From Lachnospiraceae bacterium (GTDB lineage Bacteria; Bacillota; Clostridia; Lachnospirales; Lachnospiraceae): a stretch of 64,000 bases of DNA. The translations under genes and the position numbers were made by a program. How positions within the stretch are numbered: position 1 is the stretch's first letter; the number at the start of each line of letters is the position of its first letter. The notes beneath the pieces were generated by a model. The model was given only the letters and a program-made list of their open reading frames with translations. It had not been told where the DNA came from and made no database searches. The DNA is taken from the NCBI GenBank assembly GCA_015057525.1, contig SVEE01000005.1, positions 1 to 64,000 of the forward strand, given 5' to 3'. Shown piece after piece: positions 7,677 through 58,847 of this stretch.

Positions 7677-9587
7677 TTAGTGTTGTGATTCATCACTAAA
7701 TGCACTGTCTTTGTCCACATCATAGTTTTCTTTAATTTTTGAATTTATTGCTGCAGACTGTTTTTCAAACTCATTGTATGCTTCATCCTGAGTTTTTCTT
7801 TCAGTTTCTTCCTTATCTAAATCAACAATCTCAGAAATCACTTGTACATCTATCCTTGATGTATCATCATCAGATGGGTCAGTATCTTGAAGCTTTATAG
7901 TATCTATAGGTGCATTTACATCTACAGTCTCCTCTTCTTCAACATCGTTTTCATTTTTCGCCTCTATAATTTCTTCTTCTATAGATTTACCCTGTTTTTT
8001 CTTAGATTTCTTATCTTCTTTTACATCACCTATTGTATCAAGAGCCTCATGATTGACCTTTCCTCCTGTAACATTTACAAGCTGTTCAATCATTACCTCC
8101 GCATCTTCCAATTCATTCTTATACTTCTTTGATTTGATTCCAACACTTATAAGAATTACTATCAACAGAAGAATTAAAGCTCCTGCACCTATACAAATAT
8201 ATAACACATTCTGCTTAGTGAAAAATGTTTCTTCCTTAGGCTCGGTAGGCACATCTGTCATGGTTGCATCTGAAGCTGTTGCTGTGTACATTATGTTTCC
8301 ATCCTCAACCATTCCTGAATATCTAAGAAACGTTCCTTCTGCCATATCGTAAAGATAAAAGCCCTCTTCAGCGTCAATATTCATAGCATATACTACATAT
8401 ATATCACTGTCAGTGATGCTAGAGGATTTAAACGCGGAAACCTTCTTACCATTAATTGTAATCTCTTCCGGTGTAAATGTGGCAGGAACCGTAACATCAT
8501 CTGGAACAGACATAATAATATATCTATTATAATTTGGGGAATACTCATTGTACGGAATAAATTCGTCTGTCTCTGCTCTATATATATACCAGTAGTTCTT
8601 AAGGTTCTCGTCCTGCAAACACACAAGAACAATCTTTTTGTTTGGGGATTCAAATGCCAAAACCTCCCAATCCTTATACTGCATTGTGGTTGACGAATAG
8701 CCTTCTGGAACACTAAGTCCTAAAACATCTGTAATAAATGTATACTCTGTTCCATCAATAGTAGCCTTTGCTACACCAGCCTCGTCACCTACGATTACAT
8801 TTAAAATATAAATCTTAACAGCACCATTTTCAGCAGTTACAATAACTTTAACTGTATTTGAACCCGGCTTTAATTCATCTGCTCCTGTAACATTTGTAGA
8901 TGCGTTACTATCTTCTGTTTCAGCACTTACTATTATGCTTGTTTGATCCTCTTCCAAATTAACTGTATACGATGTAACATCATATGAAAATTCTGGTTCA
9001 AGTTCTCCCGGAGAAACCTGAAGAGACACAAGATTGCAGTTAGCTGACTTTTGTTCTTCTGTAGTTTCATCATCAGAAGGCGCCTCCGTAGTTGGAGCTT
9101 GTGTGGTTGGTTCATCGTTGGAAGGTGCTTCTGTAGTTGGTGCCTCTGTTGTAGGCTCTTCCGTTGCAACAGTTACATTTGCACCAGCATGAGAAATAGA
9201 AAGCTGATTATAATCTATATCATAAACCTCTGTTCCACTTGTAGATACATAACAGTTTCCATTGCCAACAGCTGTAAATGTAAGTGTTGTGGAACCTGTT
9301 CCACCACAAAGAGTGATTGTTCCTCCAGAGCCATTTGCCTGAGCAGCACCACTGCCTGACACAAACTGAAGAACACTTGCATCATAGGTCAAATAAATAG
9401 TGTACTGGGAAACAGTAGAACCGCTTACAGAAACCGTAACAGATACATTCTGCCCAATACTTACACTACTAGAGGACAATGCTATAACAACAGATGCATC
9501 CTCTGCTTTAGAATCAATAAATGGTAAATTTATACCCATAATCAAAATCAGAAATACCGCTATTATGTTCCTTAACTTCTTAAACAT
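7677..9587 (-). CDS. Membrane-anchored cohesin-domain surface protein
   Basis: A type I membrane protein of 636 aa. After a signal peptide comes a cohesin-type domain (about residues 30-140: ASVVIALSSSSVSIG...YDASVLQFVSG), a Thr/Pro/Glu-rich linker with TTEAPTTEAP repeats, and a cadherin-like beta-sandwich (about 185-265). A further extracellular region follows, then one membrane helix (about 468-490) and an acidic cytoplasmic tail of about 140 aa. The track starts five codons upstream, but GGAGG falls inside those codons, so the ATG at 9587 is used. It follows a dockerin-bearing hydrolase by 18 bp, so it is the likely docking partner. The cytoplasmic tail has no recognised domain. Confidence 0.85.
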   Translation of the reverse strand: MFKKLRNIIAVFLILIMGINLPFIDSKAEDASVVIALSSSSVSIGQNVSVTVSVSGSTVSQYTIYLTYDASVLQFVSGSGAAQANGSGGTITLCGGTGSTTLTFTAVGNGNCYVSTSGTEVYDIDYNQLSISHAGANVTVATEEPTTEAPTTEAPSNDEPTTQAPTTEAPSDDETTEEQKSANCNLVSLQVSPGELEPEFSYDVTSYTVNLEEDQTSIIVSAETEDSNASTNVTGADELKPGSNTVKVIVTAENGAVKIYILNVIVGDEAGVAKATIDGTEYTFITDVLGLSVPEGYSSTTMQYKDWEVLAFESPNKKIVLVCLQDENLKNYWYIYRAETDEFIPYNEYSPNYNRYIIMSVPDDVTVPATFTPEEITINGKKVSAFKSSSITDSDIYVVYAMNIDAEEGFYLYDMAEGTFLRYSGMVEDGNIMYTATASDATMTDVPTEPKEETFFTKQNVLYICIGAGALILLLIVILISVGIKSKKYKNELEDAEVMIEQLVNVTGGKVNHEALDTIGDVKEDKKSKKKQGKSIEEEIIEAKNENDVEEEETVDVNAPIDTIKLQDTDPSDDDTSRIDVQVISEIVDLDKEETERKTQDEAYNEFEKQSAAINSKIKENYDVDKDSAFSDESQH

Positions 9588-9605
9588 ATTCTTCCTCCAC
9601 ATGTA

Positions 9606-11474
9606 CTAATTAGTAATAATTTCTAGACCAACTATATGTCTTTGTATTCTAACGATGTCTAAAACCGATATTTTACCATCCTGATTTAAATCTCCTACAG
9701 CCATTATATTTTCATCTGAAGCATCAAGTCCAACTATAATACGCTGTAGCTTAACAATATCCAATACATTTATCTTACCATCACCATTAAGGTCTCCTAC
9801 AGACGAAACGGTAGGTGTTGTATCTGTTGTTGTATCAGAGGCTGTGCCTCTTACTACAGTAAGAGTATATGTTCTTACATTACCACTTTGAGCAGTAACA
9901 TTAATCGTTATTTTGTTTGTTCCTAGCGCTAGGCTAATAGAACCAGTACCTGAAATCTTGGCATAACTATTAACAGTTGAAGCTGATACAACTATTCTAT
10001 CTACAGATTCAGGTATAATAAGTGAATATTCCGTTGTGTTATTTATGCTAAATGAAGGTGTAAGAGAATATCCATCTACAGTAAGGCTACTCAACCAATT
10101 ATTGGGGTTTCCAGAATCCGCAGGCTTAGAGCATGCAGTATCAGGCATGTTGTTATATACTGGAATTTCGAAAACCATGGAGGAACCAAGTAAATTATTT
10201 TTCTTGTATGCATCATAGTTTGTAAGACATTCTGAAGCAGGTGCCTGCACATTACTCATGTACTGGTGACTAAACAGACATGACTGATTAGTTACATTGA
10301 ACTTCTGCGTATAAAGTGTATTTTGTCCAACAGAAATATATGATGTTCCTAAAAACTGAGCACCACCAATTATTGATTTAGATACTGAATTCCATGGTCT
10401 TCCGTAAGAACCTGACTTAGACGCCCAATCAAGACCTTTCAATACCGCTGAACCATCAGCAGAATCATAGGCACCTATATTATAATAATTATATATTCCA
10501 GGATACTGAGCACTTGAACCATTAGCTGCAATACCTGCTGTTGCTCCCATTTCTATTCTGATTCTTGATGCAATGTGATATGGACTTACTCCACTTTGGG
10601 CAGCAGCATCCATAATTATCTGAGCATATGTCTTTGTTTCCCCCTGTGGTACAGTATTGGACATAAATGTCCCTTGAAGAATCGCTTCAACACCAAGTTC
10701 ATTTTGCACGCCCTGCTGATAAGATAAGCTCTCAAATACAAATATATAATTCTCATAAAGATATGTTCTTGGGTCAAGATAATATGTAACTAATTCATCT
10801 GACGCTGCAAACCATGTGGAACCATCATATGGACTCCACTTATCTGTAGCACAATTATAACCTACAGATGTAGAACGCCAGTTGTAATGAGGATAACTAC
10901 TTGAAGTACCAACAAGATTTTTCACCTGACCAGTTTTATTACATTCATTATCAAGAAGTGTCTTCCACTCTATTCCAGTCTGAACTGCTCTAAACTCCCA
11001 ATTAGGGTATTTCTCATGTATTGCTCTGAGCATAACCTTGTAGCTTTCTGGAAAGCCCTCTGCTGCCAATTTCGCTTCAAAGTCTGTATCACCTGAAGGT
11101 GTAGCAGGCGTTTCAGGTTGAACAGACGGTTGCTCTTCTGGCTGGGTTTCATTTATAACAACATACTGAGACGATACATAACCTGTATATCCTATACCGT
11201 TATAAGTCAAAGAAACCTGATACCAAGCAGAATTAGTAGTATCTAATATTGTAAGCTCATTTCCTCCATGTAAAAAAATAACATTTCCATTATTATCCTT
11301 TATGGGATTTCCCCCTGGCGTTTCTCTAAAATATACATAACTTGCATTATCTTTTATCTTTCCTGTAGTCGCCGCATAAGAATCCATATCATGGCAAACT
11401 GGATTGACCAATAAAAGCACCATAACAAACGCCATCACCATATATATTGTTTTAAACGTTCTTTTGTGACTCAT
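9606..11474 (-). CDS. Secreted N-acetylglucosaminidase with SH3b, cadherin-like and dockerin domains
   Basis: A 622-residue exported peptidoglycan hydrolase candidate. Domain order: signal peptide (cut near DSYA-A, about 35), SH3b wall-binding domain (about 38-110), linker, glucosaminidase domain (about 130-445; PNWEFRAVQTGIEWKTLL and ASRIRIEMGATAG, probably with the catalytic glutamate), cadherin-like beta-sandwich (about 462-548), and a C-terminal type I dockerin. The dockerin has two calcium-loop repeats, DLNGDGKINVLDIVKLQRII and DLNQDGKISVLDIVRIQRHI. The ATG has GGAG 7 nt upstream. The next gene encodes a membrane cohesin, which suggests in-operon cohesin-dockerin tethering. Confidence 0.9.
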   Translation of the reverse strand: MSHKRTFKTIYMVMAFVMVLLLVNPVCHDMDSYAATTGKIKDNASYVYFRETPGGNPIKDNNGNVIFLHGGNELTILDTTNSAWYQVSLTYNGIGYTGYVSSQYVVINETQPEEQPSVQPETPATPSGDTDFEAKLAAEGFPESYKVMLRAIHEKYPNWEFRAVQTGIEWKTLLDNECNKTGQVKNLVGTSSSYPHYNWRSTSVGYNCATDKWSPYDGSTWFAASDELVTYYLDPRTYLYENYIFVFESLSYQQGVQNELGVEAILQGTFMSNTVPQGETKTYAQIIMDAAAQSGVSPYHIASRIRIEMGATAGIAANGSSAQYPGIYNYYNIGAYDSADGSAVLKGLDWASKSGSYGRPWNSVSKSIIGGAQFLGTSYISVGQNTLYTQKFNVTNQSCLFSHQYMSNVQAPASECLTNYDAYKKNNLLGSSMVFEIPVYNNMPDTACSKPADSGNPNNWLSSLTVDGYSLTPSFSINNTTEYSLIIPESVDRIVVSASTVNSYAKISGTGSISLALGTNKITINVTAQSGNVRTYTLTVVRGTASDTTTDTTPTVSSVGDLNGDGKINVLDIVKLQRIIVGLDASDENIMAVGDLNQDGKISVLDIVRIQRHIVGLEIITN

Positions 11475-11641: not shown

Positions 11642-13816
11642 CTAGTACAATGCAACTCCATTGCCCTGCATATAACAAAGTCTCCCTTCCCAGTCATATG
11701 TGTATGTATTAACCATAAGGGTTCCATCCGCATTAGCATATCCAAAGCCACCTGCTGCCCCTTCCCAAGGTGTTCCATCTGCACACATCACAGTATCTGA
11801 GAATTGGAACCAATTGTCTCGTTCTAATACACCATATGGGTTTGCATAATAAAGATTCTTTCCTTCTTTATCATAAGTAACAACATCTACATAAAGGTAA
11901 CCATTCACATCAAAGAAACAGTAATCATCTACTTTTTCACCTGCTATAGTCACTTTTATATTGGCAAAGTCGCTGAATACTTCATGACCGTTTTCATCAA
12001 AATATATTATATGCTCTCCATCCGGATGATATGTAAGTCTATCCATCATAGGAGAACCATCATACTGAAGATAATATGTGTATATACCATCACAGAAGAA
12101 TGCATCTGTTATGCGCACCCCATCTAATTCATAATAATATACTCCATTTGCATCTTTCTCAAATGTTCCACCATTTACAGTTATATTATAATATGGTACG
12201 ATCTTCGCTGCACTTATAACAAATGGGATATTATTATCCTTTGCATACTGTTCTAACGAACCACCTGCATATCCGTATATAGTCAACGCATCACTATATA
12301 AAAATGCATCTGCATCAATTTTTACCTCTGAGCGGAGAATCTCTAATTTCTCGAGTTCACCACAATAATGGAACGCATATCCGGCAATATACTCAACAGT
12401 ATCAGGTAATTTAACCTCTTTGAGGCTTACGCAGGTACTAAACGCCCAATCATATATTTCTGTAACAGTATCAGAAATTGTAACTTTTTCTAAATTAATG
12501 CAATCCTTAAATGCAGAACCACCAATTCTGGTTACACCTTCTTCTATTATGACTTCCTTAACAGCATTTTTATATTTGCTGTAAAGATTAATGTCATTAA
12601 AATAAATATTGTCAACACTTAAATCCCTGCAATCATCAAACATAGGGCCTGTTCCTGATATAGTAAGCTTACCTGTATTCTCAAATGTCCATGTCACATT
12701 TTCTCCAATCTTGCCTGTCTCGACAACACATGGAGTAAGAATTTTACCTTCACCCTCTAACTTATAGAACAAAATACCATTTTCATTTGCAAATGTCTGA
12801 GCTTTGCTTCCCTCATATCCCATAATTGTTACATTCTCACAATTTTTGAATACATGAGCACCAAATGAATGTACTGATGCCGGAATCATAATATTTTCAA
12901 GACTTGTACAATTCGAAAAAGCATCTAAATCAATACAATATACCTGATCAGGAATCACAATAGTCTTAAGCTTTATACATGCATTAAAGGCATTCACACC
13001 TATATACTGAATCGAATTTGATAAAACAACCTCCTCCAAATCCGAACAAATATAAAATGCATCGGCAGGAATTTCTGTAAGAACACCCGCAATATTTATA
13101 CTCTTCACATGAGACATGCAAAATGCTCCACGCTCAATTTTCTCTAAAGTTGATGGTAACACAAGTTCTGTATCTGTTGTGAAAGCTGCTCCAAATGCAT
13201 CCTCTCCAATCACCTTAAGCCCCTCATTAAATTGGATACCCTCAAGACTCTCACATCCCCAAAAAGCCTTTGTACCAATAGATTCAAGTGTAGAAGGTAA
13301 CTTTATATCTTTCAACACTACACAAGAACGGAAAACACTGTCTTCAATTGCTGTTATTCCCTCAGGAACAATAACTGACTCTAGGGCACAACCTTCAAAT
13401 GCAAAACCACCTATTGACTCTAATGACTCTGGGAAATTAATATTCTTTAAGCTACTGCAACGGTTAAATGCATATCCACCAATACTCTTAAGCGTTCCCG
13501 GCAAAGAAACTGTTGTAATATTTTCACAGAAATTAAACATATTACAAGCCACAGAAGTCACACCTTCATCAATAACAATGGTCTTAATAATATCTCGATA
13601 ATCATTAAATTCATCAATTAAATCAACATACATATCTCCTGAACCGTAAATATGTAGATTACCCTCAGCATCTAATTCCCAATATACGTTTTCACCACAC
13701 TGACCACTTGCCATAGTTGCCGCCTTGGTATCTGTCACTACGAGCGAAAATGCCATAAACATAGACACCATACCAAGTAAAGTGCTTTTAATTATATGCC
13801 TTACTTTTCTATTCAT
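11642..13816 (-). CDS. BspA-type leucine-rich repeat surface protein
   Basis: A secreted protein of about 724 aa with a signal peptide ending near TDTKA-A. It has two modules, each opening with a GENVxW...G...I.G.G strand segment (SGQCGENVYWE and GKIGENVTWTF), followed by LRR_5 repeats of the form F..C..L..I.LP..L..IG..AF. About ten repeats are in the first module and three in the second. The C-terminal 180 aa (YNITVNGGTFEK..., LYYANPYGVL, LCYMQGNGVALY) look like aromatic wall- or glycan-binding repeats. It is probably an adhesin or binding protein. The start is set at 13816 because GGGAGG precedes that ATG by 5 nt. It is transcribed alone. Confidence 0.88.
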   Translation of the reverse strand: MNRKVRHIIKSTLLGMVSMFMAFSLVVTDTKAATMASGQCGENVYWELDAEGNLHIYGSGDMYVDLIDEFNDYRDIIKTIVIDEGVTSVACNMFNFCENITTVSLPGTLKSIGGYAFNRCSSLKNINFPESLESIGGFAFEGCALESVIVPEGITAIEDSVFRSCVVLKDIKLPSTLESIGTKAFWGCESLEGIQFNEGLKVIGEDAFGAAFTTDTELVLPSTLEKIERGAFCMSHVKSINIAGVLTEIPADAFYICSDLEEVVLSNSIQYIGVNAFNACIKLKTIVIPDQVYCIDLDAFSNCTSLENIMIPASVHSFGAHVFKNCENVTIMGYEGSKAQTFANENGILFYKLEGEGKILTPCVVETGKIGENVTWTFENTGKLTISGTGPMFDDCRDLSVDNIYFNDINLYSKYKNAVKEVIIEEGVTRIGGSAFKDCINLEKVTISDTVTEIYDWAFSTCVSLKEVKLPDTVEYIAGYAFHYCGELEKLEILRSEVKIDADAFLYSDALTIYGYAGGSLEQYAKDNNIPFVISAAKIVPYYNITVNGGTFEKDANGVYYYELDGVRITDAFFCDGIYTYYLQYDGSPMMDRLTYHPDGEHIIYFDENGHEVFSDFANIKVTIAGEKVDDYCFFDVNGYLYVDVVTYDKEGKNLYYANPYGVLERDNWFQFSDTVMCADGTPWEGAAGGFGYANADGTLMVNTYTYDWEGRLCYMQGNGVALY

Positions 13817-13909
13817 ATTAACCTCCCAATATAACAAAAAAATAGTACATCAATCATAACATTTCTTTCATATAAAGTAAATCAATATATAACATTAAAA
13901 CATTTTAAC

Positions 13910-56265: not shown

Positions 56266-57411
56266 CTAATACAACCAAAGAAAATTATTATCTGTACTTA
56301 AAAACTCTATGTTATTTATAAACAGCACATTCTCTATACCATTCTCTTTAGCAAGTTTGCTTACACTATCATGGTAATATCTCAAATCCACTACTATTAT
56401 CTCACTATAATTATCTGCCAGCAGTGGCAAAAAGCTATGAGCATACGAATCCTTCACAACAAGAAGCTTTCCGTTATCTTCTGACACTGCGTTGCTTGTT
56501 ATTTTTATAATAGAGTGATTTCCATCTAAATAAGTTGTATATTTGTCCTTTATTTCCAAATTCTCATAATTATATAATGAGTCTGACGTCCAACCTTCGT
56601 CTAAATACTCAACGGTATATTCGCCATCAGGTTTGTGATAAAGCAATACTTCATCTGGCTCTGCGCTAAAGGTTGGAACATTTGAATAAAGTGTTCCATA
56701 GAACTCATCACTTGCCACTTCGATATCATATACATCTGACAAATCAAAATCAGTATTATTTGCAAATTCAGAAGAATCCTCTATTCCCACAAATTCACAG
56801 TAAGACTCGTATCCTATATACGCCCCTTGCATTGTCCAGTGGTGGTCTGTTTTGTAATAAATATACTCATCTTTATTTGCCATAAGCTCATCAAAACAAT
56901 CTGTTACTGCTATCTCATCTGATACACTTCCATAGATATACGCAAGCACCTCTGACTGATCATAGCAGGATGCGTAAGAAGGAAGCCTGTCCTCATACAC
57001 GTAGCAAGCGTTTGGAATAAGCAACCATGTGCAGTTTAAGTCAGAATTTGCCTCTGCAAATTCATTTACATAGGAAACGTTAGTTCCAAGCTGATTGTAC
57101 GGATTTTGATAATCCTGAATAAGCATATCCTCCGCAAAATAAACACCATTGATATACTTTTGATTAAGTGCCAGATTCTCAGTAACTTTAAGCTTTACGA
57201 GAAAATCCTTAAATATAATCTGGTCACTCATATATTTTTCAAAGTTCTTTGTAAACTCTCCGTTTACTATGCTTTCTCCAGTAATTTCAGGAAATTTAGT
57301 AAGATTTCTATTTTCCATATCCGAAAAATCTCTGTCCTTTGCTATAACTGAGCCAAAGGCAAACACACAAATAAACGCAAGAAAACTAATTGTAAGAATT
57401 TTATTCCTCAT
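56266..57411 (-). CDS. DHHW family protein (AlgJ/AlgX-like O-acetylation partner)
   Basis: A 381-residue protein with an N-terminal membrane anchor (about 5-24) and an extracellular SGNH-like domain. RDFSDMENRNLTKFPEITGE and YMSDQIIFKDFLVKLK are typical starts. The KTDHHWTMQGAYIGY segment carries the DHHW motif, and VVKDSYAHSFLPLL carries the serine-type motif. Such proteins transfer or handle acetyl groups on surface polysaccharides together with an MBOAT protein, which is encoded 11 bp upstream. The polymer is unknown. Confidence 0.9.
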   Translation of the reverse strand: MRNKILTISFLAFICVFAFGSVIAKDRDFSDMENRNLTKFPEITGESIVNGEFTKNFEKYMSDQIIFKDFLVKLKVTENLALNQKYINGVYFAEDMLIQDYQNPYNQLGTNVSYVNEFAEANSDLNCTWLLIPNACYVYEDRLPSYASCYDQSEVLAYIYGSVSDEIAVTDCFDELMANKDEYIYYKTDHHWTMQGAYIGYESYCEFVGIEDSSEFANNTDFDLSDVYDIEVASDEFYGTLYSNVPTFSAEPDEVLLYHKPDGEYTVEYLDEGWTSDSLYNYENLEIKDKYTTYLDGNHSIIKITSNAVSEDNGKLLVVKDSYAHSFLPLLADNYSEIIVVDLRYYHDSVSKLAKENGIENVLFINNIEFLSTDNNFLWLY

Positions 57412-57422
57412 GTGCTTACCTC

Positions 57423-58847
57423 CTAAAATCTAAAATACAGGAATGGATTAAAGGCTTCTCCTGCCAAAAAAGCAACAGAAAGTACTGCCATTCCAATTAA
57501 AACAACACTTTCTATAAGTCCTGAAGCAACCTCTGATTTATTTGACATCTTATCCATAAACTTAGCTACAAGCTTCTTTGGAAATGGTGTTGCTGCCACA
57601 AAAGCAATAAGCAAAAACATTCCATAGGAAATCAAATAGAACATAGTTGTATCGTTGGCAAAGGCCAAACCATTTAATCCAAACATATTAAATACCGCAG
57701 TCTTTAATGCAGGCAACTTGTCATATGCAAAAATAACCCATCCTAAATTTATGAAAAACAATGCATATATATGTGAAACAAGCTTTGGCATTTTCTCAAT
57801 CCATTTTCCAAGCCACATTTTTTCAACTGTAAGCAGGACAAAATAATAGATCCCCCAGATAACAAAATTCCATGCTGCACCATGCCAAATACCGGTAAGC
57901 AGCCAGACAATAAATATATTTCTTAATGTTTTAACCTTACCACACCTATTTCCTCCCAAAGGAATATACACATAATCTCTAAACCATGTACTAAGTGAAA
58001 TATGCCATCTTCTCCAAAACTCAGTAATGCTTTTTGAAATATAAGGATAGTCAAAATTCTCAAGGAACTTAAAACCAAACATTCTCCCTAAACCAATTGC
58101 CATATCTGAATATCCTGAAAAATCAAAATAAATCTGTATAGAAAATGCTATAGCCGAAATCCAAGCCAGTACCACCGTATTGTCATTAGCTGATAATTTT
58201 GAGATACTGTCTACTATTTCTCCTGCCATATTTGCAATAAGTACCTTTTTGCCAAGTCCAAGGATAAAACGTCTTACACCCTCGCCAAAATCATCAATGC
58301 TTTCTTTTCTCACATCTAACTGCTCTGCAACTGTCTCATATCTGACAATTGGTCCTGCAATAAGCTGTGGAAATAAAGTAATATATGCTGCAAGATTTAT
58401 AATATTTTTCTGACATTTTGCCTTATCTCTGTAAACATCTACCGTATATGAGAGAATCTGAAATGTATAAAATGATATACCTATTGGGAGCTCAAGTCCT
58501 AAAGTCTTTATGTTTATACTTGGTATATTGTTGATTGTATCCGCAAAGAAGTCAAAATACTTAAAGAAAAACAGCACACCAAGATTAATCACTACTGACA
58601 TAACAACTGCAAGCTTGGCCATTTTTACATTGTCCTTGCACATGAATTTATCAACCATAATTCCACCAATATATCCAACTAATATTGATGCAATCATGAC
58701 AAATACATACTTTGGTTCACCCCATGCATAGAATAAAAGGCTAAAAAGCATTAAAACAAAATTTTTAAGAAATCTTGGACTTATATAATAAACCAATAAA
58801 ACTATTGGTAAAAATGCAAATAAAAATGTAATACTTGAAAAAACCAT
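57423..58847 (-). CDS. MBOAT family O-acyltransferase (AlgI/DltB-like)
   Basis: A 474-residue membrane enzyme with about ten helices. SSITFLFAFLPIVLLVYYIS at the start, SFYTFQILSYTVDVYRDKAK, FPQLIAGPIVRYE, WRRWHISLSTWFRDYVYIPL and TGIWHGAAWNFVIWG (catalytic histidine) are family hallmarks. It moves acyl groups, probably acetyl, across the membrane onto an extracellular polymer. It is first in a two-gene operon with the DHHW protein. No dltA/dltC genes are nearby, so polysaccharide O-acetylation is more likely than teichoic-acid alanylation. Confidence 0.95.
   Translation of the reverse strand: MVFSSITFLFAFLPIVLLVYYISPRFLKNFVLMLFSLLFYAWGEPKYVFVMIASILVGYIGGIMVDKFMCKDNVKMAKLAVVMSVVINLGVLFFFKYFDFFADTINNIPSINIKTLGLELPIGISFYTFQILSYTVDVYRDKAKCQKNIINLAAYITLFPQLIAGPIVRYETVAEQLDVRKESIDDFGEGVRRFILGLGKKVLIANMAGEIVDSISKLSANDNTVVLAWISAIAFSIQIYFDFSGYSDMAIGLGRMFGFKFLENFDYPYISKSITEFWRRWHISLSTWFRDYVYIPLGGNRCGKVKTLRNIFIVWLLTGIWHGAAWNFVIWGIYYFVLLTVEKMWLGKWIEKMPKLVSHIYALFFINLGWVIFAYDKLPALKTAVFNMFGLNGLAFANDTTMFYLISYGMFLLIAFVAATPFPKKLVAKFMDKMSNKSEVASGLIESVVLIGMAVLSVAFLAGEAFNPFLYFRF

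What the first reader, a model, noticed from the sequence alone, without database searches (positions are those of the whole stretch)
7677..11474. Adjacent dockerin-bearing glucosaminidase and membrane-anchored cohesin: a possible non-cellulosomal wall-hydrolase tether
Seen: the 9606-11474 product ends in two complete calcium-loop repeats (DLNGDGKINVLDIV, DLNQDGKISVLDIV), and the gene 18 bp downstream encodes a cohesin-type domain followed by a linker, a cadherin-like domain, one membrane helix and an acidic cytoplasmic tail. Known: type I dockerins bind cohesins with high affinity in cellulosomes. Inference: here the pair would hold a peptidoglycan hydrolase at the membrane face, with the 140-residue cytoplasmic tail linking hydrolase position or state to the cell interior. 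No polysaccharide-degrading enzyme is nearby.
Basis: partly seen in the sequence, partly recalled or inferred. Interest (0 to 1): 0.72.

Follow-up and report, generated by a model that had tools for sequence, protein, structure and literature searches.

The report
Cohesin–dockerin tether for wall-cutting enzyme
In gut Lachnospiraceae, the lock-and-key protein pair known from cellulose-digesting complexes appears to have been reused as a one-to-one tether that holds a cell-wall-cutting enzyme at the bacterium's own membrane; this is predicted from comparative sequence evidence and has not been shown by a binding assay.

Summary
Gene 9606-11474(-) encodes a secreted SH3 / SagB-like GH73 glucosaminidase / cadherin-like / type I dockerin protein. 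Gene 7677-9587(-), 18 bp downstream with its own GGAGG site, encodes cohesin / cadherin-like / an undescribed conserved domain / one membrane helix / an acidic tail. This genome (97% complete) has one dockerin and one cohesin, so no cellulosome explains the pair. The pair is adjacent in 34 of 36 same-genus genomes; the other two are 64-71% complete. Across 130 Lachnospiraceae genera, 25 have a dockerin-bearing GH73 directly upstream of the partner, and in 21 it carries the genome's only dockerin. Dockerin divergence tracks cohesin divergence (partial r 0.43, p 0.001), not the enzyme domain on its own chain. Three species have moved the dockerin and one genus has a different glucosaminidase; both keep the partner. 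Not shown: binding (AlphaFold2 docking was inconclusive), activity, or signalling. The dockerin is not universal: about 20 genera keep enzyme and partner without a recognisable one, and 29 have the partner alone, often beside LytR-CpsA-Psr ligases. Best reading: a dedicated wall-hydrolase tether that works like SagB-SpdC but with cellulosome-type parts.

The parts
9606..11474 (-). Secreted glucosaminidase gene, 622 aa: signal peptide, SH3-like, SagB-like GH73, cadherin-like, dockerin
11160..11273 (-). SH3-like domain (residues 68-105)
   Evidence: Pfam SH3_3 E 3e-5, below curated cut-off; 50 of 59 relatives match SH3_3
10155..11126 (-). GH73 catalytic region (about residues 117-440); predicted catalytic Glu308 at 10551-10553
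   Evidence: SagB alignment; E308 invariant
9849..10094 (-). Cadherin-like beta-sandwich before the dockerin (residues 461-542)
   Evidence: PF12733 E 3e-8
9615..9797 (-). Type I dockerin, two calcium loops (residues 560-620); the only dockerin in the genome
   Evidence: PF00404 E 4e-9; single genome hit
7677..9587 (-). Membrane-anchored cohesin gene (partner), 636 aa from the ATG with the Shine-Dalgarno site
9594..9598 (-). GGAGG ribosome-binding site of the partner gene
   Evidence: sequence
9159..9497 (-). Cohesin domain; the only cohesin in the genome
   Evidence: Foldseek 2jh2/2w1n/6kgf cohesins
9048..9158 (-). TTEAP-rich linker
   Evidence: translation
8796..9026 (-). Cadherin-like beta-sandwich of the partner
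   Evidence: PF12733 E 1e-7
8307..8771 (-). Membrane-proximal all-beta domain, undescribed, conserved across the family
   Evidence: no significant PDB fold match
8142..8216 (-). Single transmembrane helix, followed by a lysine-rich stretch (cytoplasmic side)
   Evidence: hydropathy and alignment
7680..8141 (-). Acidic cytoplasmic tail, about 150 aa, poorly conserved except its tip
7698..7724 (-). Conserved tail-tip motif YDVDKDSAF; its only occurrence in the genome

Best explanation
The two genes form an operon for a one-to-one, non-cellulosomal tether. The dockerin at the C-terminus of the secreted SagB-like glucosaminidase binds, probably in a calcium-dependent way and in either of two orientations, the cohesin at the outer end of a single-pass membrane protein. 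The enzyme is thereby held a short distance outside the membrane, where new glycan strands emerge, and would trim or release them much as SagB does when scaffolded by SpdC in S. aureus. The cadherin-like modules act as spacers, the membrane-proximal domain is a conserved part of the stalk or a sensor, and the cytoplasmic tip may dock the assembly to an internal partner. Shown here: domain content, uniqueness in the genome, conserved adjacency, specific co-divergence, symmetric dockerin repeats. Inferred: binding, hydrolysis of the cell's own peptidoglycan, nascent-strand role, calcium control, cytoplasmic docking.
For: Exactly one dockerin and one cohesin (own cohesin profile at E<=1 also finds one) in a 97% complete genome, in adjacent genes with no terminator-like site between them. 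Same order and strand, gaps -17 to 191 bp, in the genus: 34 of 36 genomes. In 130 Lachnospiraceae genera, 45 of 62 with this GH73 have the partner directly downstream, 25 of these with a Pfam dockerin; in 21 it is the genome's only one (my tally). Partial Mantel: dockerin-cohesin r 0.43, p 0.001; dockerin versus its own catalytic domain 0.10; dockerin versus the partner's other domain 0.01; holds by rank, within the genus and without divergent clades. Loop positions 9-11 are identical in both repeats in 70, 85 and 91% against 26-35% expected. Dockerin relocated between SH3 and GH73 in three species, partner kept. A non-orthologous glucosaminidase (PF01832) with a dockerin beside the partner. 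The closest solved enzyme is SagB, which a membrane protein scaffolds (PMC10581084).
Against: AlphaFold2 on the read-through dockerin-cohesin chain gave confident modules but pTM only 0.51, so docking is not predicted (the intervening signal peptide may interfere). About 20 genera keep enzyme and partner adjacent without a recognisable dockerin, and 29 genera have the partner without this enzyme. Nine Ruminococcus/Oscillospiraceae loci carry the GH73-dockerin with no partner within the stretch held. The cohesin scores only just above the Pfam cut-off. Related sequences can inflate Mantel tests. No expression, binding or activity data exist.
Confidence: 0.74

Rival explanations
1. The partner is a general cell-envelope scaffold of Lachnospiraceae whose ancestral role does not involve dockerins; its cohesin-like domain binds other ligands, and the dockerin on the GH73 is one of several later ways of attaching a wall enzyme to it.
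For: 29 of 84 genera with the partner lack this GH73. In at least eight GH73-less loci the gene upstream is a LytR-CpsA-Psr ligase, in one a ChW glucosaminidase. GH73 enzymes without a dockerin still sit upstream of the partner, several sharing a C-terminal PGGSNVTIVP-like tail.
Against: Does not by itself explain the specific dockerin-cohesin co-divergence or the 21 genera whose only dockerin is in the pair. It is compatible with the best explanation as a wider frame.
Confidence: 0.4
2. An ordinary but reduced cellulosome or mucinolysome: the pair is a leftover of a polysaccharide-degrading complex.
For: Uses the same two modules; some Lachnospiraceae genomes do carry 22-27 dockerins (G349, G313).
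Against: One dockerin and one cohesin in this genome. The conserved enzyme is a peptidoglycan-type glucosaminidase in 25 genera, not a plant or mucin polysaccharide enzyme. Extra dockerins in same-genus relatives sit on a CHAP/amidase wall protein, a transglutaminase and LRR proteins.
Confidence: 0.04
3. The enzyme is released and acts on other bacteria or free wall fragments; the dockerin binds cohesins on neighbouring cells, or the cohesin captures foreign dockerins.
For: The enzyme has a signal peptide and no visible membrane anchor of its own; gut communities hold many dockerin-bearing proteins.
Against: Pair-specific co-divergence and near-invariable adjacency point to a partner in the same cell.
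Confidence: 0.08
4. Adjacency without interaction: two wall proteins co-transcribed, with the calcium loops of the dockerin serving only to stabilise the enzyme.
For: The enzyme-partner linkage persists without a dockerin in about 20 genera. AlphaFold2 did not dock the modules confidently.
Against: Dockerin divergence follows the cohesin rather than its own catalytic domain. Recognition positions vary in step in both repeats. The dockerin survived relocation and enzyme replacement.
Confidence: 0.12

Closest known systems
S. aureus SagB-SpdC peptidoglycan-release complex (PDB 6u0o; PMC10581084)
   Same: A GH73 glucosaminidase of the same kind, with the catalytic Glu aligned, proposed to be held and oriented by a membrane protein.
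   Different: [quoted passage not shown] here the proposed scaffold is a single-pass protein with a cohesin, and the enzyme has a dockerin instead of being membrane-associated by itself.
R. flavefaciens RflaF_05439 (NlpC/P60 modules plus X-dockerin) on the sortase-anchored ScaE cohesin (PMC3573020)
   Same: Precedent for a putative peptidoglycan-type peptidase attached to the cell surface by dockerin-cohesin.
   Different: Belongs to a large cellulosome with over 220 dockerin proteins; the cohesin is covalently wall-anchored and shared; different enzyme family; not a dedicated adjacent pair.
Non-cellulosomal cohesin modules of Clostridium perfringens glycoside hydrolases (PDB 2jh2, 2w1n, 2vo8)
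   Same: Closest solved folds to the partner's cohesin; cohesins used outside cellulosomes.
   Different: Those modules are in secreted carbohydrate-active enzymes (2w1n GH84, 2vo8 GH33); here the cohesin is on a membrane protein with a cytoplasmic tail and the client is a wall hydrolase.
Minimal cellulosomes and mucinolysomes (PMC7157769, PMC12997984)
   Same: Calcium-loop dockerins and cohesins assembling enzymes at the cell surface.
   Different: Scaffoldins with several cohesins and many dockerin enzymes for nutrient polysaccharides; here one of each, on a peptidoglycan-type glucosaminidase.

Membership tests
Cohesin-dockerin interaction pair | Dockerin with two F-hand calcium-loop repeats | tested here: met
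   PF00404 E 4e-9, both loops intact
Cohesin-dockerin interaction pair | Cohesin beta-sandwich fold | tested here: met
   Pfam 24.5 bits vs cut-off 24.1; AlphaFold2 model matches solved cohesins, best E 2e-8
Cohesin-dockerin interaction pair | The two modules form a complex | tested here: inconclusive
   pTM 0.51 for the read-through chain; co-divergence supports it indirectly
Cohesin-dockerin interaction pair | Calcium-dependent high-affinity binding in vitro | not testable with these tools
   needs purified modules
Type I dockerin with dual binding mode | Recognition residues repeated symmetrically in both loops | tested here: met
   positions 9-11 identical in 70-91% of 53 dockerins vs 26-35% expected; symmetry criterion as in PMC7157769
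Cellulosome | Scaffoldin with several cohesins | tested here: not met
   one cohesin in the genome
Cellulosome | Several dockerin-bearing polysaccharide-degrading enzymes | tested here: not met
   one dockerin in the genome, on a GH73
SagB-SpdC peptidoglycan-release complex | SagB-type GH73 domain with catalytic Glu | tested here: met
   E308 invariant; NCBIfam SagB 47 bits, far below its 425-bit cut-off, so related but not SagB itself
SagB-SpdC peptidoglycan-release complex | Integral CAAX-protease-like partner | tested here: not met
   partner has one membrane helix and a cohesin; no such Pfam match
SagB-SpdC peptidoglycan-release complex | Cleaves nascent glycan strands | not testable with these tools
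   needs enzyme assay

The most novel reading that the evidence does not exclude
A family-wide trans-membrane control system for wall remodelling: a cohesin receptor with an undescribed membrane-proximal domain and a conserved cytoplasmic docking tip captures interchangeable wall enzymes (SagB-like GH73, other glucosaminidases, perhaps LytR-CpsA-Psr ligases) through a dockerin or a substitute tail, coupling extracellular hydrolysis to an internal partner.
Probability: 0.27. Interest if true: 0.85.

Novelty: new variant of a known kind. Interest (0 to 1): 0.68.

Why it matters
Cohesin-dockerin pairs are known chiefly as the assembly principle of cellulosomes. A dedicated one-to-one version that holds a peptidoglycan glucosaminidase at the membrane, found in many genera of common gut bacteria without any cellulosome, would show the module doing housekeeping work on the cell's own wall. 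It would make directly testable how these bacteria position a potentially lethal wall-cutting enzyme. It also warns annotators not to read a lone dockerin as evidence of fibre degradation: the paired enzyme of Vescimonas fastidiosa carries a 'polysaccharide catabolic process' tag.

Tried and rejected
Structure of the complex: the two genes happen to be in frame across the TAG stop, so a read-through chain was folded with 33 sequences; the modules were good, docking not confident (pTM 0.51), and no coordinates were available to inspect. Fold search of the membrane-proximal domain: no PDB match better than E 0.15. A first regular expression for the tail tip was wrong and was replaced. Promoter scans gave no more hits than shuffles, so no promoter is claimed. 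The cellulosome reading was tested by genome-wide dockerin and cohesin searches and rejected. The paper on the SagB-SpdC structure is not held; its content is taken from PMC10581084. Literature searches found no description of this pair, in an open-access library only.
Full report
OBSERVATION. Both genes are present at the stated coordinates on the minus strand. The upstream product (9606-11474, 622 aa) has a signal peptide, an SH3-like region, a glucosaminidase region, a cadherin-like domain (PF12733) and a type I dockerin (PF00404, residues 560-614, E 4e-9). Pfam's PF01832 does not recognise the enzyme, but NCBIfam's SagB model does (E 1.4e-12), and the best solved relatives are S. aureus SagB, alone (6fxp) and with SpdC (6u0o), E 5e-11. 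In the alignment the Glu of SagB's LLETGA motif pairs with E308, which is invariant in 59 relatives; that this Glu is catalytic is established GH73 knowledge, from memory.

The downstream gene most likely starts at ATG 9587, preceded by GGAGG, 18 bp after the stop of the first gene. No terminator-like site lies between them on this strand. The AlphaFold2 model of the cohesin matches solved cohesins, first those of Clostridium perfringens (best E 2e-8), then C. acetobutylicum, Archaeoglobus and others.

IS IT A CELLULOSOME? No. In this 2.35 Mb genome (97% complete) Dockerin_1 matches once, Cohesin matches once, and a cohesin profile built here finds only the same place at E<=1. The 24 other window ORFs scanned are housekeeping, transport or surface functions with no polysaccharide-degrading enzyme.

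CONSERVATION IN THE GENUS. The two genes are adjacent, in this order and on one strand, in 33 of 36 same-genus genomes, with gaps of -17 to 191 bp. In a 34th, the pair is cut by a contig end with the start of the partner still visible. The two genomes without a match are 64% and 71% complete. Named records of the genus include Eubacterium sp. MSJ-21.

CONSERVATION BEYOND IT. A scan of named genomes found 478 relatives of the enzyme and kept 80. By a dockerin profile made here, 73 of the 80 carry a dockerin (my count), and nearly all Lachnospiraceae loci, including Lachnospira multipara and L. pectinoschiza, have the partner downstream. In a sample of 130 Lachnospiraceae genera (tallies made by hand from the printed places), 62 have the GH73 and 84 have the partner's membrane-proximal domain. 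In 45 the two are adjacent. In 25 of these 45 a Pfam dockerin lies in the GH73 frame, and in 21 genera that is the only dockerin in the genome. Outside the family the pair occurs in Vescimonas fastidiosa, Oscillospiraceae (NZ_AP023416.1, 10 bp apart).

SPECIFIC CO-DIVERGENCE. For 73 pairs, distance matrices were made for the dockerin, cohesin, catalytic domain and membrane-proximal domain. Controlling for the other two domains, dockerin and cohesin correlate at r 0.43 (p 0.001). The dockerin correlates with its own catalytic domain at only 0.10 and with the partner's other domain at 0.01. The result holds with ranks (0.46), within the genus (0.53) and without the most divergent groups (0.37), though in that last subset the dockerin-catalytic correlation rises to 0.19. 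Mantel tests on related sequences overstate significance, so the contrast between domains matters more than the p value.

DOCKERIN SYMMETRY. In 53 dockerins, loop positions 9, 10 and 11 are identical in the two repeats in 70, 85 and 91% of cases, against 26, 27 and 35% if the second repeat is taken from another protein; the neighbouring position 8 shows no such excess. Positions 7, 17, 18 and 21 also exceed expectation. Symmetric recognition residues are the accepted sign of a dual binding mode, asymmetric ones of a single mode (PMC7157769). Shared ancestry within proteins, such as gene conversion between repeats, could contribute.

NATURAL EXPERIMENTS. In three species of the genus the dockerin lies between SH3 and GH73 instead of at the C-terminus, and the cohesin gene still follows. 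Five species carry a distinct dockerin type (NYK in the loops) and a correspondingly distinct cohesin. In genus g193 the dockerin upstream of the partner is on a different glucosaminidase (PF01832, E 4e-17). In one same-genus species a second dockerin sits on a CHAP/amidase protein with peptidoglycan-binding domains.

WHAT DOES NOT FIT NEATLY. About 20 genera have enzyme and partner adjacent without a Pfam dockerin; 17 of those fetched also lack one by my profile, and seven of them share a C-terminal tail like PGGSNVTIVP that might be a substitute docking peptide (untested). Twenty-nine genera have the partner without the GH73; of 20 fetched, at least eight have a LytR-CpsA-Psr gene directly upstream by Pfam and one a ChW glucosaminidase. 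Nine Ruminococcus/Oscillospiraceae loci have GH73-dockerin with no partner within the stretch held, several at contig ends. So the partner looks like a broader envelope scaffold, and dockerin-cohesin is one way, not the only way, to attach to it. Whether the dockerin was gained or lost was not determined.

STRUCTURE. The read-through dockerin-cohesin chain gave mean pLDDT 87 but pTM 0.51, so AlphaFold2 did not place the modules confidently; the intervening signal peptide forms a helix continuous with the dockerin and may interfere. The membrane-proximal domain is predicted with confidence as all-beta (pLDDT 91, pTM 0.67) and has no significant PDB fold match (best E 0.15).

CYTOPLASMIC TAIL. 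The tail is poorly conserved except its end. Of 105 distinct partners with a tail of 35 residues or more, 36 end in an acidic-aromatic tip such as DDDFEFIDL and 34 carry a DSAF-type tip, against a mean of 2.1 in shuffled tails (the expressions were chosen after seeing the data, so this overstates the case). Each motif occurs once in its genome, in the partner (in four genomes). Fifteen partners have almost no tail, some in dockerin-bearing pairs, so signalling cannot be essential to the tether.

MECHANISM. The best-supported reading is a tether: the dockerin captures the membrane-bound cohesin and keeps the glucosaminidase near the membrane, as SpdC does for SagB, whose complex is proposed to cleave nascent glycan strands and release them from the membrane (PMC10581084). 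Shown: the parts, their uniqueness, linkage and co-divergence. Inferred: binding, calcium dependence, substrate, and any link to the cell interior. The nearest precedent is R. flavefaciens RflaF_05439, an NlpC/P60 protein with an X-dockerin on the wall-anchored ScaE cohesin (PMC3573020), but that lies within a large cellulosome.

VERDICT. A real, conserved, non-cellulosomal use of cohesin-dockerin, a new variant of a known kind. No earlier description was found in the open-access library searched, which does not cover most subscription journals.

Noticed in passing
window 8307-8771: Membrane-proximal domain of the partner: no Pfam family, no significant PDB fold match, yet found in 84 of 130 Lachnospiraceae genera and in Oscillospiraceae.
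   Followed up: partly
L201-L207: GH73 enzymes without a dockerin, with roughly 100-250 aa inserted inside the catalytic region and a conserved C-terminal PGGSNVTIVP-like tail, still directly upstream of the partner gene.
   Followed up: partly
L180, L181, L183, L185, L192-L195: The partner gene lies directly downstream of a LytR-CpsA-Psr wall-polymer ligase in genera lacking the GH73.
   Followed up: partly
L098 and L099 (same genus): Additional dockerins on a CHAP/amidase protein with peptidoglycan-binding domains, a transglutaminase-like protein and LRR proteins; whether they bind the single cohesin is unknown.
   Followed up: partly
L246 (Vescimonas fastidiosa NZ_AP023416.1 503342-506849): The same gene pair in a named strain outside Lachnospiraceae, annotated only as dockerin and cadherin-like proteins.
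   Followed up: yes
window 11642-13837: Secreted BspA-type leucine-rich-repeat protein immediately upstream of the pair, 168 bp away.
   Followed up: no
window 56266-58847: DHHW/AlgX-like gene next to an MBOAT acyltransferase gene, a layout seen in surface-polysaccharide O-acetylation.
   Followed up: no
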